Source: Pythium myriotylum
Lineage: Eukaryota > Oomycota > Peronosporomycetes > Pythiales > Pythiaceae
Direction: 5' to 3'
NCBI GenBank assembly: GCA_023091665.1
Contig: JALJCQ010000006.1
Span: 930,001-994,000 of the forward strand
DNA: 64,000 nucleotides
The translations under genes were made by a program, and so were the position numbers. Positions 6,072 to 27,828 of the stretch are shown here, piece by piece. Within the stretch, counting starts at the first letter, position 1. Each line of letters starts with the position of its first letter. A model generated the notes under the pieces. The model had not been told where the DNA came from and searched no databases. It worked only from the letters and a program-made list of their open reading frames with translations.

Positions 6072-8093
6072 ATGGCCGATTCGCTGCGCAGGCGTCCGGG
6101 CAAAGGAGCCGCTTCTGCCGCCGCCAAGCCGGCGCCGCTGCAGCGCACGGCGAGCTGGCACCAAAAGGCCACCAACCACGTGCTCACGCGGCGCCGGTAC
6201 TCGCTGCTGGCGGGCGTTCTACTCGGCATCGCCGGGTTCGCGCTGCTCAACGTGTACTACTTTGACAAACCGATCCCGGATGTGGCCGACATGCTCCAAC
6301 TGCCGGCGGAATCGGTATGGTCCTCGAGGATTTGAGGGCGTTCGGATTATCTCCCTACTGACCACGCATTGCTTCCGCCAACTGAGCAGATGAAGATCCT
6401 GCGCGACAAGTTCAAGCTTGAGTGGGACAAACGCGTGAACGACGACTTGCTGGCGTCGTTTGACTACCGCCCGCTGCTCGCGAGTTCGAAGGATCGCCCG
6501 GGACTCCAGCTCCAGGCAGAGAACGTCACGGCGTACTCGCCCGTGGTGTTGCTGCCGGGCTTCACGTCCACAGGCCTCGAAATCTGGAACGGACGAGACT
6601 GTAGCAAGGCCTACTTCCGCCAGCGTATGTGGGGCACGACGCGCATGCTACAGCAGTTTATGCTCAACCAGAAGTGCTGGCTCGAGCACGTAATGCTCAA
6701 CCGCACGACGGGACTCGACCCAGAAGGTATCAAACTGCGTGCAGCTACTGGTCTTGAAGCAGCCGACTACTTGATCGGTGGTTTTTGGGTCTGGGGCAAG
6801 ATCGTCGAGAACCTCGCGGATATTGGCTACGATACCAACAACATGTACATGGCACCGTACGATTGGCGGCTCGCCCCACCGCTCATGGAGGTGCGCGACA
6901 ACTACTTCACGCGTCTCAAGCACATGATCGAAATGGCCAAGGCCGCGAGTGGTGGACGCAAGGTCGTTGTCGTAGCGCACTCGTACGCGACCCAAGTCAT
7001 GCTTTTCTTTATGAAGTGGGTTGAGAGTGAGAAAGGCGGAAAGGCCGGCCCCAAGTGGGTCGACGACCACATCGACTCGTTCGCTAACATCGCTGGCCCG
7101 ACGCTGGGCACCGTCAAGTCCATTAGCGCGCTGATGTCGGGCGAAATGAAGGACACTGCCGAGCTCGGCGGACTCTCGCGATTCCTCGAGTTCTTCTTCG
7201 CCTCTCCGGGTCGTGCGGCGCTCGCACGCTCATGGTCGAGCGTCTTCACGATGCTTCCAATCGGTGGAGAAACTATCTGGGGTGACGCGACTGGTGCTCC
7301 CGACGATATTGCTTCCCGCTTTGCCAAGCCTGAAGAAAGCGAGGACGGCGAGGTCAAGATCTCGGATGCAGACTCAGTCGCCGAGCACATCGCGGCTCAT
7401 GGCAGCAGCGGTCTCGTTGTTCAATTCTCGAACGAATCGATTGCAAACCTGACGGTGAGTGCGGTCCACGAACGACTCGGCGCGATGGACTCGGACCTCC
7501 AAGGCTTCCGCAAGCTACTCGAGTTCGGGAACCCGGGTGAAGACCCGTCGCTGCCCAAATTCGACGAGCAGAAGTACTGGACGAATCCACTAGCGTCGAC
7601 GCTGCCAAACGCACCCAACCTCAAGATTTTCTGCCTCTATGGCGTCGGCAAACCTGTCGAGCGCGGCTATGTGTACCACCCGAATGATCTCGATGACGAT
7701 GTGCCGCTGGCAGACGGCAAGCCGACGGTTCCGCACGTTCTTCATACTGAGTACGACGCGCTGCCGTGGATCAAAGCCGGCGTGCGCTACACGGATGGTG
7801 ACGGTACCGTGCCGCTCATCTCACTCGGCTACATGTGCGCGCGAGGCTGGCAGAGCAAGAAATACAACCCAGGAGGTGTCCATGTGCGCGTGCGCGAGTA
7901 CAAGCACAACCCCGTGTCGATCCTCTTCGACCCGCGCGGCGGGCCGGCCACGTCGGACCACGTCGACATCATGGGCAACCACGAGCTGATCAAGGACCTC
8001 CTCGAGATCGCTGCGCGCCAGTACCACCGCGTTCCGGAGCAGATCTCGTCGCAGATCCACGAGATCGCCGACCGCGTGCAGCTGGAGCTGTGA
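6072..8093 (+). CDS. Phospholipid:diacylglycerol acyltransferase-like LCAT family protein
   Basis: Two exons, 6072-6314 and 6390-8093, encode 648 residues. The 75-nt intron has donor GTATGG, a TACTGAC branch site and acceptor GAGCAG. Without splicing the frame stops at once after the donor. PDAT moves an acyl group from a phospholipid to diacylglycerol to make triacylglycerol on the ER. One N-terminal membrane anchor is visible (SLLAGVLLGIAGFALLNVYY, about residues 44-63). The remainder is an alpha/beta hydrolase of the LCAT/PDAT type: PVVLLPGFTSTGLEIWNG near the oxyanion region, nucleophile motif VVAHSYATQVM (AHSYA where GHSMG-like is usual), acid region YTDGDGTVPL and the late His in DHVDIMGNHELI. 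Overall length and topology match PDAT. Substrate is inferred from family. Confidence 0.9.
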
Positions 8094-16427: not shown

Positions 16428-17384
16428 TTAGTAGTTCTCGGCCTCCGCCTTGCCGGGTGAGTACTTGGCTCCGCGCTGGAGAGCGTCGAAGCCGAAGCTG
16501 TCGCCCTCACCACCGACATCCGGCTCTGGGAGATCCTTGTCACAGTCTTCGTCGTTTCCTGGCTCGGGCAGGTCCTCATTGCAGTCCTCGTCCTTGGGCT
16601 CGGGGAGGTCGTCTTCACAGTCCGGCTCAGGGAGATCCTGGTCGCAGTCATCACCCTCACCGCCCGTCTCACCGCCGGCAGCACCACCGTTGCCGGCGTT
16701 GCCGCTGTTGCCACTGTTGCCGCTGTTGCCACTGTTGCCGCTGTTGCCACTGTTGCCAGGGGCCGGGGCAGGAGCAGCTGGGGCAGGAGCCGGGTCGCTA
16801 GGCTTTGAGGGCTTGCTCGGCTTCGACGGCTTGCTAGGCTTCGAAGGCTTGCTGGGCTTCGAAGGCTTGTTCGGGGTTGGCTTGGCCGGCGTCGGGCTGG
16901 CAGGGGTCGGCGCGCTCGGCGTCTCGGCCTCGCCGCCGGCTTTGTCTCCCGGCTCAGGGAGGTCATCTTCACAGTCCGGCTCCGGGAGGTCCTGGTCGCA
17001 GTCGTCGTCCTTGGGCTCCGGGAGGTCATCAGCGCAGTCCGGCTCCGGGAGGTCCTGGTCACAGTCATCGTCGTTGGCGCGCGTCTCGGAGGCGTTGTCG
17101 TCGTCGTCATCGTCATCGTTCGAGCGCGTCTCCGGGGCTTTGTCATCATCGTCATCGTCGTCGTCGCCATCGTCCTCGGGCTCGGTGCTGTCGTTGCTGT
17201 CGTTGTCACCCTCTTCTTCGGCGAGTTTCCGGCCGGTGTGGGTTGACGTGAACTGCAGGCCCGCGAGCTCACCCGAGGCCGCGACGCTCGCGACCTCGTT
17301 GGAGCGCAGGTAGCTGTTGGCCTCGGTGGGCGCGTAGAGCGCCGCGGCCACAGCGGCGGCAAAGAGCAGCTTGGCGGCGACCAT
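16428..17384 (-). CDS. Secreted acidic Cys-repeat protein with CxxDLPEP units (no catalytic domain)
   Basis: A 318-residue protein starting MVAAKLLFAAAVAAALYAPTEA, a clear signal peptide, then an RKLAEEE stretch and long Asp runs. It contains eight C-x-x-D-L-P-E-P units in two clusters of four, for example CDQDLPEPDCADDLPEP. The clusters are separated by a KPS repeat and a GNS repeat. The C-terminus reads FGFDALQRG, then YSPGK, and ends AENY. The same units and a matching end (GF..., PGK..., QY) occur at the C-termini of the AA17-like LPMOs at 18529-19473 and 22606-23610. No enzyme domain or membrane anchor is present. Metal binding or wall association is inferred from the acidic Cys composition only. 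The frame is open to 17459, but the ATG at 17384 gives the signal peptide. Confidence 0.88.
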   Translation of the reverse strand: MVAAKLLFAAAVAAALYAPTEANSYLRSNEVASVAASGELAGLQFTSTHTGRKLAEEEGDNDSNDSTEPEDDGDDDDDDDDKAPETRSNDDDDDDDNASETRANDDDCDQDLPEPDCADDLPEPKDDDCDQDLPEPDCEDDLPEPGDKAGGEAETPSAPTPASPTPAKPTPNKPSKPSKPSKPSKPSKPSKPSKPSDPAPAPAAPAPAPGNSGNSGNSGNSGNSGNSGNAGNGGAAGGETGGEGDDCDQDLPEPDCEDDLPEPKDEDCNEDLPEPGNDEDCDKDLPEPDVGGEGDSFGFDALQRGAKYSPGKAEAENY

Positions 17385-18528
17385 TTTGGGGGTTCGATAA
17401 GGTAGGAAGGGGCCGGGCAATCGCGAAATGGGAGTCCTTTTCGGTCGATCATCCATCACTTTGCGCTAGTTCAGGGAGCCTCTGCCGGGAACCGGCAGCC
17501 AACATGGAGCGCCGACTGTGCCGCGAAACCACCTGGGCGCGCCGAGATGTGTTCGAAGCTGGTACGACCCAACGACGGCTCTCCCAAGGTCCAGCTGGAC
17601 GGGCAGGTGGATCCTGTCACAATTAATTCATGGTAGAAATGGTTTTCTCTTTCTGATACGTGGATATGTAGAAAGTGACTGCATGAATTTATATGGACGA
17701 ACTGAATCGCTCACGCAGCTGGACTGATCGCGAAGATCCGGAGAGGATTGTTGACAGCATGTGGATGGCCAGGTGGACCCGACGAGCTGCTGGATGTAGC
17801 GGATGCGCGGCGGCTGGGGATCTGCAGGCGGAAGGCCCCTGGCCGCCTCAACCAGGCGCTGGAGAAGGACACTCGATCGCGGCTTCTACAGCCCCCGAGG
17901 AAGACAGCGCCGTCGGGGACAGTGCAGCATTCCGTTGGTCCGCTCCGGACAAAAAACATGAGTGGATACGAACAAGGAGATGGACTTCAACTTCAACTCT
18001 GACAACTTCGCTTGACCAACGGGACATGAACGAGTTAGTCGAGGCCGAGCCTTGGCGGGTGCTCAGTGCCCGGGAGTCGGCTACTCAGTGGCTTTCGAGG
18101 GGGGGGGGGGGGGGGGTCTACTCGATGATGATGATGAAGGTGAAGTCGATTGAGCGCAATAAATGTACCCTAATAGCTGGAGCTCTATGCGTTCAGGGGG
18201 AGGCTACTCTGTCATGAGGTGGAACATGATACGGTCTGGTTTTGGTGAGCTCCATAGACTTTGGCTGAAAACTATTCTACATAGGTCATAGGTCAGGTGT
18301 GACTCGTCACCGAGCTTCTCCTCGCTCCATGCTCGAAGTGAATGCTTCCGCCGGAAATCACCCACACGACAGAGGTGCTGTATTTGCATCAAGACAATGC
18401 ACGTAGCTCTCATTCTTTCTTTATCAAAAATAGAGCGAGTATACTGTGATGGATTAGCCAGACTCACCGGGTGCTCATGACGACATTGGAACCAAACGAC
18501 GCTAAACAATCCATACGCGTAGGAACCC
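17385..18528. other. Intergenic region with poly-G tract
   Basis: No convincing gene. The plus-strand frame 17693-18217 runs through the G tract and lacks coding character. Contains G18 at 18099-18116. Confidence 0.5.
18099..18116. repeat. Poly-G tract (18 G)
   Basis: Eighteen consecutive G, the longest homopolymer seen in the window. Confidence 0.9.
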
Positions 18529-19473
18529 TTAACGGTACTGCTTTGGCGAGACCTTGCCTGGAGAGTCTTCGCCTCCATTGTTGTTAATGGTGCCGAAACC
18601 AATGTTGGAAGTTGGCCAGTCCGCTTCTCCGCCAACATTGCTTCCCGACGGCTCTGGAAGATCGTCGCAGTCCGAACCCGGCTCAGGAAGGTCATCGCAG
18701 TCCGAACCAGGCTCCGGGAGATCGTCATCGCAGTCCGGTTCTGGAAGGTCGTTGTCGCAATCCTCACTGCCGGAGGCCGGAGAAGGGGTGGCTGCTGATG
18801 TCGAAGGTGCTGTCGTCGTCGAGGGAGTCACGGTTGGCGTGGATGATGATGAGGAAGACGGCGAGGACGTCGCTGGTGTCGCCGAAGATCCGCTGTTGCC
18901 GGAGGAGCCACCAGACAGACCGGCACAATTAACATACATCTGCCATTGCGGCGAGTGAAGCGCGAGCCAGTATGCCGTCAACACTTTGGCCCCAGCACAC
19001 TTGGATGCGTCGTAAGGGAGCTGAGCTGGAGCCTGTGGGTAATCCTTGGCGCAGTTGTCGTCGTGGAAGGCCATCGTGTCATCACACCAGATTTCGCACG
19101 GGCCCTGGTGGGATGGTGTAAAGCCCTCTGTCGAGCTGTGAGTCCATTCGACCTTGGGAGGAAGCGGCTGCGGATCTGCGACCGCGCTGTTACCACAGGC
19201 TCCGATGTTGCCCTTTTTGGTGATGAGGTCCTTGAGAGAGGTGTATCCGCTCGTCTTGATCCAGGCCGTGTAGGCCTTGGTGTTGGACTCAGGGTCGGTC
19301 GTGAAAGACATACCAGAGGGTGGTGTAAACTGCGAGCTGTCGATCGTTCCAGCCGGGGCTGTGATATCACCTCCGTTTGGGAACGACACTTTTGGAAGAG
19401 CCATGTAGCCGTGGCCGGCCACGAGCGGTGCCGAAAGGGCGGCTGTCGTCAGGAAGATACTGGTCGACACCAT
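18529..19473 (-). CDS. AA17-like lytic polysaccharide monooxygenase with CxxDLPEP tail
   Basis: A 314-residue secreted protein. The signal peptide (residues 1-20, ending PLVAG) leaves His21 as the mature N-terminus (HGYMALPK), as the copper-binding histidine brace requires. A second brace His is likely H122 in SHQGPCEIWCDD. An AA9-like pattern follows (ALHSPQWQMYVNC), giving H173, Q178 and axial Tyr180. AA17 enzymes of oomycetes oxidatively cut pectin (established for the family); substrate here is inferred. After the catalytic domain (to about residue 185) come a Ser/Thr linker and four DLPEP units, then IGFGTINNNGGEDSPGKVSP. It faces an HGQM-type LPMO gene across a divergent spacer. The ATG at 19473 is chosen for the signal peptide. 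Confidence 0.9.
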   Translation of the reverse strand: MVSTSIFLTTAALSAPLVAGHGYMALPKVSFPNGGDITAPAGTIDSSQFTPPSGMSFTTDPESNTKAYTAWIKTSGYTSLKDLITKKGNIGACGNSAVADPQPLPPKVEWTHSSTEGFTPSHQGPCEIWCDDTMAFHDDNCAKDYPQAPAQLPYDASKCAGAKVLTAYWLALHSPQWQMYVNCAGLSGGSSGNSGSSATPATSSPSSSSSSTPTVTPSTTTAPSTSAATPSPASGSEDCDNDLPEPDCDDDLPEPGSDCDDLPEPGSDCDDLPEPSGSNVGGEADWPTSNIGFGTINNNGGEDSPGKVSPKQYR

Positions 19474-19515
19474 GGTGCTACTGTCAGAGGCGAGAAGATC
19501 CGAGCGTTCGCGAGA

Positions 19516-19531
19516 AGAAAGCGGAGTGAGC
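19516..19531 (-). promoter_or_regulatory. Oomycete initiator-like core promoter of LPMO gene
   Basis: On the minus strand GCTCACTCCGCTTTCT matches most of the oomycete consensus GCTCATTYYNCAWTTT, 43 bp upstream of the ATG at 19473. Confidence 0.45.
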
Positions 19532-20797
19532 TCCACATCGTGGTCCCAGCCCACCCTTGAGAGAGTCAAGAGCGCCACGATCACCGCCCAGGGTCACACG
19601 CCACATGAACAGCCGGATCGACGCAACAACTCGACAGACGTCTGGAACTGGAGAATCGAGTTAATTTTTTCAGTTTTCACATTGAATTGTCTCCATGCGA
19701 GGAGAAAGCCAGAGGCAGTCCTCCATGCCAAGCAGGGATCTCCAGAACCGGATGGAAGTCAACTCAGATCTGATCACCTATATCAAATAATGCATTATAT
19801 CTGATTCTATGACGGTAGTCAAATTGCCCGAAGAAGAAACTTCCTAAACTGAATAATGCACAAAATGATACCATTTTCTTATACTTTGCTTGGTGTCCCC
19901 TCTCAGGATCACTCGTCAAATTATCAGCGACGCTGGGACACTTGCTGGGGGTGGACCCCAAATCTTCCTTCCTGCCTGGTAAACTGTACTTGATTGACAA
20001 AACGTTGGAATGAATGAGCGAATCATGTGAGAGAAAATAGAGGGGCTCATCCCTTCCCGTACACAGAAATATGGCGAACAACCGCAATGAGCTACCTTTC
20101 CCCCCGCACCCATCGCGAAGTATTGGGAGGAGGCTCTAGCTACTAGTACTTCTGAGCTTGCCATCACCCAGCTTTCTGTGCTGTAATTCTGCTGGTACTA
20201 TTAATATTGTGTGCTTTGCAGGATGTTTGTGTGACCGGAGTCCAAGTCGTAGGAACAGGGTGAAGGGTAGGCTATTAGGACTCAAAAGACCTCACTTGCA
20301 TTATCATCAGGATGTTTGTGTGCTGGTGACATGTTTTCATATGGACTACGCGCAGATCATGTCGCTGCTGCTCATCTGGTCGCGTCCATATCGATCAGCG
20401 CCCAATTATCCGGCTATTCTCCTAGGCAGGTGAGTGTTAAAGGTTCGAGAAACAGGGATCCGAACTGAAATCGCGGTCATCGAGAACCTGAACTCAAAAC
20501 TAAATGAATTGATGGTGATAAAAATTGCGTTACGTTGGTACGATGAGCTATAACTATACAATTTCAACGAACTGACATATGACGCCGAAACGGTCGATAA
20601 TGAGTGGGCCAGCTTTGTCGGCATCAGCTTGGCTGGGATCGGTGCCCATGGCGCTTTGGTTTACCGCCTGCTTCGTCGCTTGGATCCGGGAGTTCGCCGA
20701 CGCATCTAAACTGTTGTGATACACTCGTTCAGTTCTAGTCCCACCGAGGTGCCATATCAATCGCCTTGTGTAGTGGATTCAAGCATGCGTAAAGGAT

Positions 20798-20882
20798 ACG
20801 CGAGGTCGCTAGCACCCAAGTGAACCCGCAAGAAATCGCTTAGATTCTAAGCGATTTCTTGCGGGTACCAGCGACCTCGCGT
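20798..20882. repeat. Nested perfect inverted repeats
   Basis: An inner palindrome at 20824-20866 has perfect 21-bp arms around a single central T. It lies inside an outer perfect 13-bp inverted repeat, ACGCGAGGTCGCT at 20798-20810 and its complement at 20870-20882. Not coding on either strand. Confidence 0.95.
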
Positions 20883-20886
20883 GTCC

Positions 20887-20925
20887 AACTCCGATGGGAT
20901 TCTAAGTTAGAATCCCATCCGAGTT
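20887..20925. repeat. Near-perfect 39-bp palindrome
   Basis: Arms of 19 bp around a single G, one mismatch, starting 4 bp after the nested palindrome at 20798-20882. Arm sequence differs from that of its neighbour except for a shared GATTCTAA core. Confidence 0.95.
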
Positions 20926-21001
20926 AAAGCGTTGGCGAGGAGTCATTACTCGCCAGTTGTCCCCTAATATCCATTCGTCGCTCAGCCATGCAAATGATCT
21001 C

Positions 21002-21044
21002 ACAAGTAGTGTCATACTAGCTCTCTTCGCACTGCACTACTTGT
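21002..21044. repeat. Inverted repeat, 10-bp arms
   Basis: ACAAGTAGTG at 21002-21011 and its perfect complement at 21035-21044, with a 23-nt loop. Confidence 0.8.
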
Positions 21045-21353
21045 AGGATTACTTGTTATCGCAGTTGTGCTTACACCAGGTTCTACGATTTATCCTTAAA
21101 ACGCGGCCGGAATCCCAGCTTCTCCAACAGAGCTAGATATAAGCTCCTAGTTTATAAAATCGTCATCGAACCGATGAGCCGTCACCCTCCAAACCCAACT
21201 GTTGGGCTCGCTACCAGATTTCAAGACCTTCCAGCAGAGATGCCATTTACTGTTGGTGTATAATAGGGGGCAGTTGAGTACGGCCAACACAAACAAGTGG
21301 TCTGCCCTCACAGTCGAATTTGCTCTACTACGGTGAAGCAAGACATATTAACC

Positions 21354-22163
21354 ATGGTCCCAACTCTTCATATTTTCGCCTGGATGACCGTCATGGCGAC
21401 AGTTGTCACTCGCGTTCAAAGCCATGGACAAATGACGAAGCCGGCGCCGCGCCCTGTGACTGCCAAGTACCGAGCAGATTGCTACGGCGGCCTTAAGGGT
21501 GCAGGAAACGATGAGCTGCAGTGGGCACCTGTTGAGAATCTCATAGAGCGCAAGCAGGTGGATCAGCCGTACGCTCCAACGTTCGACGTAATGAATGGCT
21601 GCCGTGGCATGGTTTACGAAGCCGGCGGTCCAGTAACGGAACTCACGGCAGGGCAAGAGTTCACTGTCGAATATTTTATTCAGGCGCCACATCCGGGCTA
21701 CCTTGAGCTTGCAATTGTGAAGCCGAAGACTGATTCTTCTGGTAAAATCATGTACGAACGATCGGCTGTGATCAAGAAGGTCGATAACTTTGCAACCAAC
21801 AGCAACGGCAAGTCGACAACAGCGACGATTCCAACAACTCTCACTGGGTGCAACAGAGCTGGCGACTGTGCGCTTCAGTTTTACTGGCACTCAGATATCG
21901 CGAAGCAAACATATCCGACTTGTGCCGATATCATCGTGAAAGGAGGAGCTGGTGGAAGTGGCGGAGCTGCTAGTGGTAGCAGCGGAAGTGGTGGGGTAGT
22001 GACTGGTGCTGGCGGAAGCGGCACTGCTCCATTGCCAGTAAGTCGCTCGACTTCGACCAACGAGACACCACTTCTTACACCCGCCGCACCCGCGCTGACA
22101 TCATCCAGGGCTCCAGAGCCGACAAAGAAGAGTTGTGTCAAGCGAAACCGTCTCCGGGTGTGA
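21354..22163 (+). CDS. Secreted HGQM-type LPMO-like protein, basic Cys tail
   Basis: A 269-residue protein with a signal peptide to residue 23, leaving His24 as mature N-terminus (HGQMTKPAPR). A likely second brace His is H113 in QAPHPGYLELAIVK. The late motif YWHSDIAKQTYPTCADI gives H179, Q185 and Tyr187, the H...QxY...C pattern shared by several LPMO families. Cys pairs (DCYGG, NGCRG, TGCN, GDCAL) suggest disulfides. The catalytic domain ends near residue 200. A Gly/Ser/Thr/Pro linker and the basic end PTKKSCVKRNRLRV follow. Not clearly an AA17 member; closest relative in the window is 25036-25866. Activity is predicted, not shown. The ATG at 21354 fits the signal peptide. Confidence 0.82.
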   Translation: MVPTLHIFAWMTVMATVVTRVQSHGQMTKPAPRPVTAKYRADCYGGLKGAGNDELQWAPVENLIERKQVDQPYAPTFDVMNGCRGMVYEAGGPVTELTAGQEFTVEYFIQAPHPGYLELAIVKPKTDSSGKIMYERSAVIKKVDNFATNSNGKSTTATIPTTLTGCNRAGDCALQFYWHSDIAKQTYPTCADIIVKGGAGGSGGAASGSSGSGGVVTGAGGSGTAPLPVSRSTSTNETPLLTPAAPALTSSRAPEPTKKSCVKRNRLRV

Positions 22164-22605
22164 CCGCCGTCAAGTCGTGAATAGCAGGTATCGTGCACTA
22201 TTCATGGTTGTCGAAGGCTGTGTTGTTTGTGTTGTTTGCGTGCGCAAGAAATGCGTTCTCTTTGAACACTGATCTCTCCTGTCTGCAAACCAAAAGTGTT
22301 GCTGATCGTGTCAACTCATTGGTGCGCGATAACACAGTACAGTACTCGCACGACATTCAGACGGGACACGGCATTAACTAACTTCATTACACTACCTGGA
22401 CGTACGGTCCAGGAGGGGTTTACTGTTCACAACAGTCCGCGTTCCGAGTGTAATCGATGACGGAAATGCGCATGGCACAGGATGACATTGACGAGTTCTT
22501 AAATACAACATCGCGGCTGACGTGCGATTATTACAAAAATGGGGAGTGACGCTTAGTATTAGTGCTAACGCGACGCACGTGGACTCTCGCTCGGGCGGAC
22601 ACAAT
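22164..22605. other. Convergent intergenic region between LPMO genes
   Basis: No gene. A 7-bp-arm hairpin (CCTGGAC/GTCCAGG) lies at about 22395-22413. Transcripts of both flanking genes end here. Confidence 0.5.
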
Positions 22606-23610
22606 CTAGTACTGGACCGGCGACACCTTTCCGGGCATGTTCTCACCACCACGCTTGTCGAGGTCACTGAAACCAATGTTGGACGTGGAGATGTCGGCGT
22701 CGTTACCGGTCTCGGCTGGCTCCGGAAGGTCGTCGTCGCAGTCTGGCTCCGGGAGATCGGTGTCGCAGTCAGGCTCCGGCAGGTCCTGGTCGCAGTCCTC
22801 ACCCTCGCCACCGGTCTCTCCCGGTTCCGGCAGGTTCTCGTCACAGTCATCATCACCCGGTTCTGGGAGGTTCTCGTCGCAGTCATCATCCGAGCCACCC
22901 GTGGCAGGAGCCGGGGCAGGCGCAGCCGGCGAAGGAGCCGACGGCGTCGATGGCGTGGACGGCTTCACAGTCGGCGTGGAGCCGCTGCTCGGAGTCGGCG
23001 ACGCGGCCGATCCGCCGCTCGAGCCACCGCTCGCTCCGCCGCTGGACGCGCCCGAGAGAGCGGCACAGCCGATGTAAATCTGCCACTCAGGCGAGTGGAG
23101 CGCGAGCCAGTAGGTGGTGAGCTTCTTGGCGCCCGTACACTTGGACTTGTCGTACGCGAGCTTGGCCGGGGCCTGCGGGAAGTTCTTGGCGCAGTTGTCG
23201 TCGTGGAAGGCCATCTTGTCATCGCACCAGACCTCGCACGGGCCCTGGTGGGACGCGGTGAAGCCCTCACTCGCGCCGTGGGTCCATTCGACTTGCGCTG
23301 GGAGCGGCTGCGGGTCGCCGAGCACACTGTTACCGCACTCGCCGACGCCACCCTTCTTGGTGATGAGGTCCTTGAGCGACTTGTATTCGCTCGTCTTGAT
23401 CCAGGCCGTGTAGGCCTTGGTGTTGGACTCTGGGTCGGTCGTAAAGGACATGCCCGACGGGGCCTTAAACTGCGAGCTGTTAATGGTACCGGCGGGCGCC
23501 GTGATGTCGCCGCCCTTGAACTGGGTCTTGGGGAGACCCATGTAGCCGTGGCCGGCCACGAGCGGCGCCGAGAGCGCGGCGGCCGTGAGAAGGAACTTGG
23601 TTTGCACCAT
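22606..23610 (-). CDS. AA17-like lytic polysaccharide monooxygenase with CxxDLPEP tail
   Basis: A 334-residue close paralogue of 18529-19473. The signal peptide covers residues 1-20 and the mature protein starts His21 (HGYMGLPKTQ). Likely copper ligands are His21 and H121 (SHQGPCEVWCDD), with H172, Q177 and axial Tyr179 in LHSPEWQIYIGC. A Ser/Thr/Pro linker leads to five C-x-x-D/N-L-P-E-P units. The end, IGFSDLDKRGGENMPGKVSP, is nearly the same as in the paralogue and the acidic protein at 16428. Codon use is more GC-rich than in the paralogue, so this copy may be the more strongly expressed one. Pectin as substrate is inferred from the family. Confidence 0.92.
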   Translation of the reverse strand: MVQTKFLLTAAALSAPLVAGHGYMGLPKTQFKGGDITAPAGTINSSQFKAPSGMSFTTDPESNTKAYTAWIKTSEYKSLKDLITKKGGVGECGNSVLGDPQPLPAQVEWTHGASEGFTASHQGPCEVWCDDKMAFHDDNCAKNFPQAPAKLAYDKSKCTGAKKLTTYWLALHSPEWQIYIGCAALSGASSGGASGGSSGGSAASPTPSSGSTPTVKPSTPSTPSAPSPAAPAPAPATGGSDDDCDENLPEPGDDDCDENLPEPGETGGEGEDCDQDLPEPDCDTDLPEPDCDDDLPEPAETGNDADISTSNIGFSDLDKRGGENMPGKVSPVQY

Positions 23611-25035: not shown

Positions 25036-25866
25036 ATGTTCTCGGCGTGCAAGATCTCGGCGGCGCTCGTGCTCGTCGCGGCGCTCGCGTCGTCGGTCCA
25101 CGGCCACGGCCAGATGACCAAGCCCACGCCCTTCCAGATCACCGACAAGTACCGCGCCGACTGCTACGTCGGCCTCAAGGGCGCCGGCGAGCAGGAGCTC
25201 CAGTACGCGCCCGTGGAGAACCTGCTCGAGCGCAAGCAGAACCAGCCCTTCGGTGCGGGGTTCGATGTCGAGAACGGCTGCCGTGGCATCGTCGCCGACG
25301 ACAAGACCGAGGTGACCGAGCTCACGGCCGGCCAGGAGTTCACGGTCGAGTACGTCATCCAGGCGCCGCACCCGGGCTACCTCGAGCTCGCGGTCGTCAA
25401 GCCCAAGACCGACTCGACTGGCAAGGTCATGTACGAGCGTGCCGCCGTGATCAAGAAGATCGAGAACTTCGCGACGAACAACAACGACAAGTCCACGACC
25501 GCCACCATCCCGACGACCGTCACGGGCTGCGAGAAGAAGGGCGACTGTGCGCTCCAGTTCTACTGGCACTCGGATATCGCCAAGCAGACCTACCCCACGT
25601 GTGCGAGCATCATCGTCAAGGGCAGCGGCGCCGGCGGAGGCAGCGCATCCACGCCCGCTACGGCCCCTCGCCCGGCGCCAGCCCCAGCTACTCCGGCATC
25701 GACACCCGCGGGCAGCACGGGATCAGATGACAATGACGCTCCGGCGCCGGCGCCGGCCCCTGCCCCAGCTCCGGCTCCGGCGCCTGCTCCAGCCCCTGCC
25801 CCGGCCCCTGCTCCCGCACCCACAAAGAAGACGTGCGTGCCCAAGCGCTTCCGTGTGCGAGCCTAA
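25036..25866 (+). CDS. Secreted HGQM-type LPMO-like protein with Pro-Ala linker
   Basis: A 276-residue paralogue of 21354-22163. The signal peptide runs to residue 23 (ASSVHG), and the mature protein begins His24 (HGQMTKPTPF). Likely brace partner: H112 in QAPHPGYLELAVVK. The end of the catalytic domain carries YWHSDIAKQTYPTCASI. A (PA)n linker of about 40 residues leads to PTKKTCVPKRFRVRA, closely similar to the basic Cys end of the paralogue, so the tail is conserved while the linker is not. Very GC-rich codon use. Predicted oxidative polysaccharide cleavage outside the cell; substrate unknown. Confidence 0.85.
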   Translation: MFSACKISAALVLVAALASSVHGHGQMTKPTPFQITDKYRADCYVGLKGAGEQELQYAPVENLLERKQNQPFGAGFDVENGCRGIVADDKTEVTELTAGQEFTVEYVIQAPHPGYLELAVVKPKTDSTGKVMYERAAVIKKIENFATNNNDKSTTATIPTTVTGCEKKGDCALQFYWHSDIAKQTYPTCASIIVKGSGAGGGSASTPATAPRPAPAPATPASTPAGSTGSDDNDAPAPAPAPAPAPAPAPAPAPAPAPAPAPTKKTCVPKRFRVRA

Positions 25867-26544: not shown

Positions 26545-27828
26545 ATGGTCTCCGTTCGTCTCGTCGCCGCTTCCCTGGCATTGGTCGCCGTCACTTCTGT
26601 CGACGCCCATAGCAAGCTCATCAAGCCCGCCCCACACTACAAGAACCCGGGTGGAGCTAACAGCCCGTCAGGTTTGATCTCGGGTAACTCTGTTCTTAAG
26701 CCACCAGCCGGCAAGTCATTCTCAACCGATCCGGACTCCAATGCCAACGCTTTCGTTGAGGCGCTCAAGAGCAGCAGCTACTCATCGCTCAAGGACTTGA
26801 TCCTCAAGAACCAGAAGCTCAGCAGTGGTGCCTCGGCTGAGTGCGGCTTTGCTGATCTCGCCGGGGCGACCCCACAGCCACTCCCCGATATGGTCGAGTG
26901 GGACGAATTCACGTCGTCGCACACAGGTCCGTGTGAGGTGTGGTGTGACAACCAGCGCGTCTTCCAGGACGACTTTTGCTCCAAGAACTTCAAGGGAAAT
27001 CCCGCCAAACTGCCGTACGACAAGGCCAAGTGCGCTGGTGCGAAGGTGCTCACGTCATACTGGATCGCTCTGCATACAGCTGAGTGGCAGGTGTACGTAG
27101 GCTGCGCGCCGCTGAGCGGTGGCGGCGGTGGCGGTGGTGGCGGCAACTCGGGTGGCAACTCGGGTGGCAACTCGGGTGGCAACAACGGCAACTCGGGCGG
27201 CAACTCGGGTGGCAACTCGGGTGGCAACTCGGGTGGCAACTCGGGTGGCACCAACGGCAACTCGGGCGGCAACTCGGGTGGCAACAATGGCGGCAACTCG
27301 GGTGGTGACACAACTGACGGCGGAAGCCACCACAGTGGAGGAAACACTGGCGGGAACAGCGGAGGCAACATGAGCGGCAACACCGGTGGCAACTCGGGCG
27401 GAAACAACGGAGGCAACAACAGTGGTAACAACGGAGGAAACATGAGCGGCAACAACGGAGGCAACAACGGAGGAAACATGAGCGGCAACAACGGAGGCAA
27501 CAACGGAGGCAACAACGGAGGAAACAACGGAGGAAACAACGGAGGCAACAACGGAGGAAACAATGGAGGCAACAACGGAGGCAACAAGGGTGGCAGCAAT
27601 GGAGGTAACAACGGTGGTAACCCTTGGGGCAACTGGGGCGGCAACAACGGTGCCAACAACGGTGCCAACAATGGCGGCAACGCTTGGGGCAACTGGGGCG
27701 GCAACAACAACAACAACAACAACAACGGAGGCAACAGGGGCAACAACAACGGCAACAAGAATGGTGGCAACAACGCCGGTTGGGGCAACTGGGGTGGAAA
27801 CAGCGGAACAGTCCGCACGGGCTGGTAG
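26545..27828 (+). CDS. AA17-like LPMO with long Gly/Asn repeat tail
   Basis: A 427-residue protein. The signal peptide ends at residue 21 (VTSVDA), giving mature His22 (HSKLIKPAPHY). Likely second brace His is H126 (SSHTGPCEVWCDN); H177, Q182 and axial Tyr184 lie in IALHTAEWQVYVGC. The catalytic domain is about 180 residues and aligns with the two CxxDLPEP-tailed LPMOs, although the N-terminus is HSKL instead of HGYM. After residue 190 the protein is about 235 residues of GGN, SGG and NGG repeats with three WGNWGG blocks, ending GTVRTGW. It has no DLPEP units. The tail may attach the enzyme to wall glycans or aid spreading; that is inference. Confidence 0.88.
   Translation: MVSVRLVAASLALVAVTSVDAHSKLIKPAPHYKNPGGANSPSGLISGNSVLKPPAGKSFSTDPDSNANAFVEALKSSSYSSLKDLILKNQKLSSGASAECGFADLAGATPQPLPDMVEWDEFTSSHTGPCEVWCDNQRVFQDDFCSKNFKGNPAKLPYDKAKCAGAKVLTSYWIALHTAEWQVYVGCAPLSGGGGGGGGGNSGGNSGGNSGGNNGNSGGNSGGNSGGNSGGNSGGTNGNSGGNSGGNNGGNSGGDTTDGGSHHSGGNTGGNSGGNMSGNTGGNSGGNNGGNNSGNNGGNMSGNNGGNNGGNMSGNNGGNNGGNNGGNNGGNNGGNNGGNNGGNNGGNKGGSNGGNNGGNPWGNWGGNNGANNGANNGGNAWGNWGGNNNNNNNNGGNRGNNNGNKNGGNNAGWGNWGGNSGTVRTGW
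27110..27800. repeat. GGN/SGG coding repeat array
   Basis: Short GC-rich tandem repeats (units such as GGCAACTCGGGT and GGAGGCAACAAC) that encode the tail of the LPMO at 26545-27828. Other frames stay open here only because of the repeat. Confidence 0.9.

What the first reader, a model, noticed from the sequence alone, without database searches (positions are those of the whole stretch)
16428..23610. Shared C-x-x-D-L-P-E-P repeat plus PGK end: an undescribed secreted tail module on LPMOs and on a stand-alone protein
Three separate secreted proteins (16428-17384, 18529-19473, 22606-23610) carry 8, 4 and 5 units of C-x-x-[DN]-L-P-E-P (some units shortened by one residue). Each is followed by a matching end: GF, a short spacer, G, PGK, then a C-terminal Tyr within one residue of the end. 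Two are attached to AA17-like LPMO domains; the third has no catalytic domain. The linkers between domain and repeats are unrelated, so the tail itself is under selection. Regular acidic Cys units could bind a metal such as Cu or Ca, cross-link by disulfides, or dock to the wall or to each other. Copper supply to the LPMO active site is one attractive idea; this is inference.
Basis: partly seen in the sequence, partly recalled or inferred. Interest (0 to 1): 0.85.

Follow-up and report, generated by a model that had tools for sequence, protein, structure and literature searches.

The report
Swappable acidic tails on secreted enzymes
In this water mould several secreted wall-attacking copper enzymes, and one protein with no enzyme part, carry the same flexible acidic, cysteine-studded tail with a fixed end; related tails occur in other water moulds and are swapped between enzymes, so the tail looks like a real attachment part whose partner is still unknown.

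Summary
Three proteins with signal-peptide-like starts carry 8, 4 (two shortened) and 5 acidic C-x-x-[DN]-L-P-E-P units plus a matching GF...PGK...Y end. Genome-wide, the full-length unit pattern falls in frame only on these three and on two further AA17 LPMOs on another contig. Diverged forms of unit and end sit on AA17 LPMOs of Pythium oligandrum, P. insidiosum, Globisporangium and Phytophthora. A profile trained on 10 Pythium-type ends recovered 11 of 13 held-out acidic-Cys tails, 7 of 18 Cys-free F-type tails and 0 of 42 tails that end in one Cys plus a basic run. Acidic-Cys units and basic-Cys ends were never seen together (107 proteins), switch at least 7 times on a quick catalytic-domain tree, and one gene is a clear chimera. 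The five LPMO_10-type genes read in this genome also carry the basic-Cys end. So the tail is a mobile, disordered, disulfide-capable module, one of two opposite-charge tail types. My leading mechanism, inferred and untested, is an extracellular docking or cross-linking tail, with the stand-alone protein as an empty multivalent hub. Copper supply is unlikely. Swappable tail: well supported. Function: open.

The parts
16428..17384 (-). P0001, 318 aa stand-alone protein with a signal-peptide-like start, acidic Asp-rich stretch, 8 acidic-Cys units in two blocks of four, Pro/Lys/Ser and Gly/Asn/Ser linker, F-type end; no catalytic domain found
16950..17063 (-). P0001 first block of 4 units (residues 108-145)
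16521..16646 (-). P0001 second block of 4 units (residues 247-288)
16431..16499 (-). P0001 end SFGFDALQRGAKYSPGKAEAENY; closer to the end of the C15 LPMOs than to those of its C6 neighbours
18529..19473 (-). P0002, AA17 LPMO (314 aa) with acidic-Cys tail
18649..18759 (-). P0002 units, 2 full and 2 short
18532..18606 (-). P0002 end NIGFGTINNNGGEDSPGKVSPKQYR
22606..23610 (-). P0003, AA17 LPMO (334 aa) with acidic-Cys tail
23056..23550 (-). P0003 AA17 catalytic domain, residues 21-185 (putative His brace H21 and H121, 6 Cys)
22717..22881 (-). P0003 five units (residues 244-298)
22609..22680 (-). P0003 end NIGFSDLDKRGGENMPGKVSPVQY
21354..22163 (+). LPMO_10-type LPMO (269 aa) with the alternative single-Cys basic end (KKSCVKRNRLRV)
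25036..25866 (+). LPMO_10-type LPMO (276 aa) with the alternative single-Cys basic end (KKTCVPKRFRVRA)
26545..27828 (+). AA17-like LPMO (427 aa) with a Gly/Asn-rich tail and neither end type, in the same gene cluster

Best explanation
The feature is a mobile C-terminal tail module of oomycete AA17 LPMOs: a disordered linker, a variable number of acidic single-Cys units ([DE]-C-x-x-[DEY]-[LIV]-..., here C-x-x-[DN]-L-P-E-P), and a conserved end of roughly 25 residues (Phi-x-F-x-x-Phi ... G-[KTQR]-V-x-P ... often Tyr or Met at or near the C-terminus in the Cys-bearing forms). It is one of two alternative tail types; the other is a single Cys followed by a basic run at the very C-terminus. Shown: anatomy, distribution, lack of co-occurrence, repeated swapping between catalytic domains. 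Inferred: the tail works outside the cell as a flexible multivalent attachment device. The end is the specific recognition element, and the exposed Cys make mixed or intermolecular disulfides, helped by the acidic charge (for example with the basic-Cys tails of other LPMOs, or with wall or mucilage proteins). The stand-alone P0001, with eight units and the same end but no enzyme, would be a hub or competitor for the same partner.
For: Units occur in frame on only five genes of the genome. The tail recurs on AA17 of P. oligandrum and unnamed metagenome contigs and, diverged, of P. insidiosum, G. ultimum, G. polare and seven Phytophthora species. A held-out profile test finds the end in 11 of 13 acidic-Cys and 7 of 18 Cys-free F-type tails, 0 of 42 basic-Cys and 0 of 14 other tails; 18 real tails score above all 1827 decoys. 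Tail Cys number by class: 1-6, exactly 1 in 42 of 42, 0 in 18 of 18. Acidic-Cys versus basic-end switches at least 7 times on the catalytic tree. L026 is 94% identical to L032 over 625 bases that span the catalytic part, with no BLAST match beyond, and 99% identical to L027 over 410 bases (the last 255 or so coding bases of the tail plus the 3' flank), although L027's catalytic part is about 80% identical: a recombinant. Catalytic-domain plus tail Cys is odd in 12 of 23 acidic-Cys proteins, which argues against purely internal pairing. Median net tail charge is -17 in the acidic class; the last 20 residues of the basic class have median +5. AlphaFold gives the tail low confidence and no secondary structure. 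Third codon positions of the core codons differ in 53% of unit comparisons, so the repeats are not fresh DNA copies.
Against: No binding, disulfide or localisation data exist here. Allowing for kinship, only 2-4 independent contrasts are informative; all go the expected way but the sign test is not significant (median p 0.25, range 0.125-0.5). Tail classes are more clustered on the tree than shuffled labels, so part of the pattern is inheritance. Where the total Cys number is even (11 of 23) all could be paired within the molecule. P0001 has no orthologue among the scored candidates (a capped list), so the hub role rests on one gene of one genome. The Phi-x-F expression was written after looking at the tails, and the profile test misses 11 of 18 tails that I labelled Cys-free F-type. 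One acidic label (L035: one acidic Cys in an Asn/Gly-rich tail) is borderline and bears on the switch count.
Confidence: 0.38

Rival explanations
1. The conserved end is a sorting or packaging tag for the secretory pathway (for example one class of secretory vesicle), and the acidic-Cys units are a spacer or aggregation aid in the vesicle lumen.
For: The end is the best conserved part and is shared by Cys-bearing and some Cys-free tails. It lies at the extreme C-terminus. It alternates with another discrete end type. Several Cys-free versions are preceded by R-x-R-S-like basic sites, where a cut could release it (read by eye from the tails).
Against: A pure sorting tag does not explain the kept, variable-number Cys units or the opposite charges. 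In the main text of a P. infestans vesicle proteome the word LPMO occurs 0 times (PMC12905231, term search and passages; its supplements were not seen), so it neither helps nor hurts.
Confidence: 0.22
2. The acidic units bind Ca2+ and thereby bridge the enzyme to pectate or to the oomycete surface.
For: Strongly acidic tails. AA17 is reported to be pectin-active (PMC8393829 passages), and pectate gels are held by Ca2+ (general knowledge).
Against: No known Ca2+-site spacing was recognised by eye. It gives no role for the Cys or for the F-type end.
Confidence: 0.13
3. The Cys units bind copper and load or protect the LPMO active site.
For: Cys and acidic residues lie next to a copper enzyme.
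Against: 74 of 97 AA17 tabulated do without the tail. Variable, often odd Cys number. No CxC or CxxC. Cys in a secreted protein are usually oxidised (general knowledge).
Confidence: 0.07
4. Low-complexity drift: disordered LPMO tails tolerate any sequence and the repeats merely expanded.
For: Tails vary greatly in length and composition; disordered C-terminal extensions are common in other LPMO families (PMC8615602 passages).
Against: The end is recovered across genera by a profile trained on others. Tail-Cys number is the same throughout two of the classes. All 24 tail Cys of the five genes are followed by L-P in register, 22 of 24 by L-P-E-P (read).
Confidence: 0.08

Closest known systems
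Disordered C-terminal regions (dCTR) of LPMOs, PMC8615602 (passages read)
   Same: C-terminal, disordered, follow the catalytic domain; Cys-rich, possibly redox-sensitive ones were noted for AA11 and AA15
   Different: That survey left AA17 out and reports no sequence conservation in its unassigned C-terminal regions; here a unit and an end are conserved across genera and exchanged between genes
AA17 LPMO of Phytophthora infestans (6z5y; Sabbadin et al. 2021, not read, known through papers that cite it)
   Same: Catalytic domain family of P0002 and P0003
   Different: Its tail is described only as disordered and rich in Ser, Pro, Thr (as cited in PMC8615602)
X473 and X474 modules on Aphanomyces astaci AA15 LPMOs, PMC8393829 (passages read)
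   Same: Short uncharacterised C-terminal extensions with conserved Cys on oomycete LPMOs
   Different: Described as short domains with even numbers of absolutely conserved Cys; here single-Cys acidic repeats in any number, even or odd, predicted without structure
Cellulosome dockerin-cohesin and scaffoldin systems (recalled, not tested)
   Same: Works-like analogy only: enzymes with a shared attachment tail plus an enzyme-free multivalent protein
   Different: No folded dockerin-like part predicted in the tail, no shown binding; a sequence relation was not looked for beyond Pfam

Membership tests
AA17 LPMO (catalytic domains of P0002, P0003, L026, L027) | Sequence relation to solved AA17 structures | tested here: met
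   P0003: 6z5y, 8s6s, 8s71 at E 1.5e-9 to 4.5e-9; P0002, L026, L027 align to P0003 at 49-72% identity, not searched against the PDB themselves
AA17 LPMO (catalytic domains of P0002, P0003, L026, L027) | AA17 fold | tested here: met
   P0003 only: model against 6z5y, Foldseek E 1.5e-10, TM 0.73 by target length; 132 residues with pLDDT of 90 or more
AA17 LPMO (catalytic domains of P0002, P0003, L026, L027) | His brace: N-terminal His after signal cleavage and a second His | tested here: met
   H21 and H121 invariant in 20 of 20 aligned sequences including P0003 and P0002 and in the 8 including L026 and L027; signal cleavage itself not tested
AA17 LPMO (catalytic domains of P0002, P0003, L026, L027) | Oxidative pectin cleavage | not testable with these tools
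   needs enzyme assay
AA17 LPMO: P0001 | Catalytic domain present | tested here: not met
   no Pfam match; its matches to AA17 genes of the genome lie in tail and linker (residues 204-318); no folded region predicted
Disordered LPMO C-terminal region (dCTR) | C-terminal to an LPMO domain and disordered | tested here: met
   pLDDT 37-57 per block of ten from residue 191 to the end of P0003, no secondary structure
Disordered LPMO C-terminal region (dCTR) | No sequence conservation (as reported for that set) | tested here: not met
   profile of the end recovers 11 of 13 held-out relatives
X473/X474 | Short domain with an even number of conserved Cys | tested here: not met
   odd tail-Cys number in 11 of 23; direct sequence comparison with X473/X474 not done
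GPI-anchored proteins | Hydrophobic C-terminal segment | tested here: not met
   the three tails end in polar residues, read by eye

The most novel reading that the evidence does not exclude
The two tail types are a matched pair: acidic multi-Cys tails and basic single-Cys tails of oomycete LPMOs (two LPMO families) find each other by charge and lock by disulfide, so that several LPMOs assemble outside the cell on an enzyme-free eight-unit hub (P0001): an oxidative, cellulosome-like complex held by covalent bonds rather than folded docking domains.
Probability: 0.12. Interest if true: 0.88.

Novelty: new variant of a known kind. Interest (0 to 1): 0.62.

Why it matters
AA17 LPMOs are large gene families in plant-associated oomycetes (an average of 46 copies in Phytophthora according to the passages of PMC8393829; 117 matching places here at E up to 10, the weakest of them tail-only or chance) and are described there as virulence factors. 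Their tails have been described as disordered and variable. A conserved end, a countable Cys unit and repeated swapping say that the tail is a working part with a partner to be found. It also splits the family into discrete classes that can be tested by simple protein chemistry (non-reducing gels, tail removal).

Tried and rejected
Rejected: chance or fresh DNA slippage as the source of the repeats; intracellular scatter of the full unit in this genome (outside tail genes only the two C7 places, judged out of frame, and one short-unit hit on C1 that I did not follow); copper supply as the general role. The zero difference at first and second codon positions is circular because units were picked by their amino acids; I use only the third-position figure. 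A loose genome pattern gave 96 hits against 148 for its reversed control and was dropped. A search for the Phytophthora-type unit CGSYDVAG in this genome found none. The P0001 genome search also listed one low-complexity match on C30 with four stops inside at E 0.0013, about as good as its weaker tail matches, and weaker ones. The P0001 protein search (17 hits, capped candidate list) gave P0004 and P0005 at E below 1e-8, the AA17 protein P0023 only at 0.93, and in between Streptomyces surface proteins and other low-complexity proteins at E 0.003 to 0.83, taken as noise. Paper searches for the motif or for AA17 tails listed nothing that describes it; that library holds open-licence papers only, I saw listings and, for four papers, passages, and the founding AA17 paper was not read.

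Rows dropped: the 116 AA17 candidates are 67 proteins (P0002, P0003 and the 65) and 49 genome ORFs. 9 had no recognisable catalytic marker or end. Four of those by eye carry the acidic-Cys type or its end (P0004, P0063, P0080, P0081) and one the basic type (P0082). 10 more were dropped as fragments, duplicates or doubtful rows, leaving 97. Six of the 42 basic-end labels and one of the 23 acidic labels (P0005) were set by hand. P0074 and P0077 (with Pfam CBM1 repeats), L036, L042 and P0069 have tail Cys that fit neither type by my rules. The catalytic tree is a quick one (no bootstrap), with long branches flagged. In one search the Cys count of the domain used a slice that can include leader residues (odd in 26 of 97); one search recounts from the mature His for the 92 rows in which it was found: 6 Cys in 74, 7 in 17, 8 in 1.
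Full report
WHAT IS THERE. The window lies at C6:930001-994000 of a 58.7 Mb, 55-contig genome held without a name; its named relatives in the tail search are oomycetes. The three minus-strand genes are intact single-exon frames. P0001 (318 aa) has 8 units in two blocks of four, P0002 has 2 full and 2 short units, P0003 has 5. All end in GF, a spacer, PGK and a Tyr within one residue of the end. P0002 and P0003 are AA17 LPMOs: P0003 matches solved structures by sequence and its model by fold; P0002 is 72% identical to it. P0001 has no recognised domain, and AlphaFold from its single sequence shows nothing folded. P0003's tail is predicted without structure.

HOW RARE IS IT. Searching the whole genome for the unit as a degenerate DNA pattern gives 22 hits: 15 in these genes, 5 in two more AA17 genes on contig C15 (L026, L027), and 2 on C7 that I judge out of frame; the reversed control gives 3. 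A search with P0001 finds the same five genes, plus one low-complexity match with four stops at a similar E-value and weaker ones. The genome has 117 places that match P0003 at E up to 10, the weakest tail-only or chance, so the four LPMOs with the LPEP tail are a few per cent of its AA17 family. I read the tails of about 45 of them.

RELATIVES ELSEWHERE. A search of 5.8 billion proteins with the P0003 tail found five proteins at E up to 1: two adjacent-numbered Pythium oligandrum genes (Poli38472_004783 and _004784) and three metagenome sequences. A profile of eight whole tail-bearing proteins found 65 (candidates capped at 7989). Among them the tail appears in diverged form (P0023): P. insidiosum (CEDDLPIAG, CDDLPEP; end INFRSFEDGEGEDAPGQVVPEDY), Globisporangium ultimum (CDDELDIAG-like units, six; end LNFDSLSSNDASEVGTVDAY), G. 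polare (CELDIAG-like; end EYGFDALDDDN), and Phytophthora capsici, oleae, cactorum, kernoviae, boehmeriae, ramorum and sojae (CGSYDVAG-like, one to four; ends such as SYNFNTFQGNTNAGTVAPQKM). So LPEP and PGK are one lineage's version of a wider acidic-Cys unit and a wider end. Because that profile contains the AA17 domain, it cannot show carriers other than AA17; the only non-AA17 carrier I know is P0001.

TWO KINDS OF TAIL. Of 116 AA17 candidates (67 proteins and 49 genome ORFs), 107 could be split into domain and tail and 97 were kept. They fall into acidic-Cys tails (23), tails with the F-type end but no acidic Cys, mostly Asn/Gly-rich (18), tails with a single Cys and a basic run at or near the end (42, six of them labelled by hand), and others (14). 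The basic-ended tails have exactly one Cys in 42 of 42, the Cys-free F-type 0 in 18 of 18, the acidic ones 1 to 6, odd in 11 of 23. Counted from the mature His, the domain of the 23 acidic-tail proteins has 6 Cys in 18 and 7 in 5; domain plus tail is odd in 12 of 23. None of the 107 proteins has acidic-Cys units together with a basic-Cys end (Fisher p 1.1e-9 on the 83 of 97 in the first three classes without regard to kinship; with kinship only 2-4 informative pairs, all in the expected direction, not significant). The Phi-x-F expression, written after seeing the tails, is met by 38 of 96 different tail ends, 0.6 of 96 shuffled on average (maximum 4) and 1 of 96 reversed; outside the last 45 residues it occurs in 4 of 107 tails. 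As a fairer test I trained a profile on 10 Pythium-type ends and scored the remaining 87 tails: above the 99.5th percentile of 1827 decoys were 11 of 13 acidic-Cys, 7 of 18 Cys-free F-type, 0 of 42 basic and 0 of 14 other tails. Some held-out rows are near-copies of each other (for example P0040 and P0048), so the rows are not independent. The basic-Cys end also sits on the five LPMO_10-type genes of this genome that match over most of the domain (two in this window, L081, L082, L083; the other six of 11 matches cover only part of the query and were not read). The two in the window match Pfam LPMO_10, which P0002 and P0003 do not.

SWAPPING. On a tree of catalytic domains the acidic versus basic label changes at least 7 times and F-type versus basic at least 13 (quick tree, some long branches, one borderline acidic label, L035). 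Labels are still more clustered than shuffled ones (30 changes for the four classes against 47.7 on average), so inheritance and swapping both act. One case is plain in the DNA: L026 is 94% identical to L032 over 625 bases spanning the catalytic part, with no BLAST match beyond, while over the last 255 or so coding bases of the tail and on through the 3' flank (410 bases) it is 99% identical to L027, whose catalytic part is only about 80% identical. The last 210 coding bases of L026 and L027 are identical. P0001's end is closer to that C15 end than to the ends of its own neighbours (alignment score 89 against 36 and 45), so the stand-alone gene may have taken its tail from a C15-type LPMO.

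WHAT IT MAY DO. Shown: a disordered (predicted), acidic, Cys-bearing tail with a conserved end, exchanged as a unit. Inferred: the end is a recognition element, and the Cys are there for bonds to other molecules, because their number is free and the total is odd in about half of the proteins. The most economical picture is a flexible attachment tail outside the cell, with P0001 as a multivalent enzyme-free partner or competitor. The bold version pairs acidic-Cys with basic-Cys tails. A sorting tag is the main rival. Copper supply is weak: most AA17 tabulated lack the tail, and the units lack usual copper spacing.

LITERATURE. In the passages I read, PMC8615602 describes disordered C-terminal regions across LPMO families, reports no sequence conservation in them, excludes AA17, and cites the AA17 tail as Ser/Pro/Thr-rich and of unknown role. 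PMC8393829 describes Cys-bearing X473/X474 on AA15 and AA17 as pectin-active. My paper searches listed no description of this unit or end.

VERDICT. Observation confirmed and enlarged. New variant of a known kind (disordered LPMO tails), mechanism open.

Noticed in passing
L058 and L064 (C23, about 598-608 kb): Two AA17 genes carry acidic tails with Cys-free repeats that contain VLPEP (AYEEANEPEVLPEPYETGNE), an LPEP core reached without the Cys.
   Followed up: partly
L037 and L038, L052 and L053 (C15, C3): Pairs of identical AA17 proteins at separate places of one contig, the second pair in inverted orientation; recent duplication or assembly duplication.
   Followed up: no
L047 (C9:214661-218182): An AA17 domain runs in one open frame into what looks (by recall) like a BED-finger hAT transposase, suggesting a transposon inside an LPMO gene.
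   Followed up: no
L043 (C9:197700-201491): AA17 gene with a long tail of repeated Lys-rich units (KDKAKDLLNKAKKKFGRELA), a further tail type.
   Followed up: no
L031, L032, L037, L051, L057, L070: Cys-free F-type ends are preceded by R-x-R-S-like basic sites (for example RGRSYDFDDVD), a possible protease site just before the end.
   Followed up: no
window 17211-17234 (-): N-terminal part of P0001 has a GRKLAEEE stretch (residues 51-58) after the leader, loosely like processing or RxLR-like sites of oomycete secreted proteins (recalled resemblance only).
   Followed up: no
P0044, P0047, P0049 (Globisporangium and unnamed): Basic-Cys tails extended by repeated basic units (TVRKKIDDKTKRNL-like), so basic tails can expand too.
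   Followed up: no
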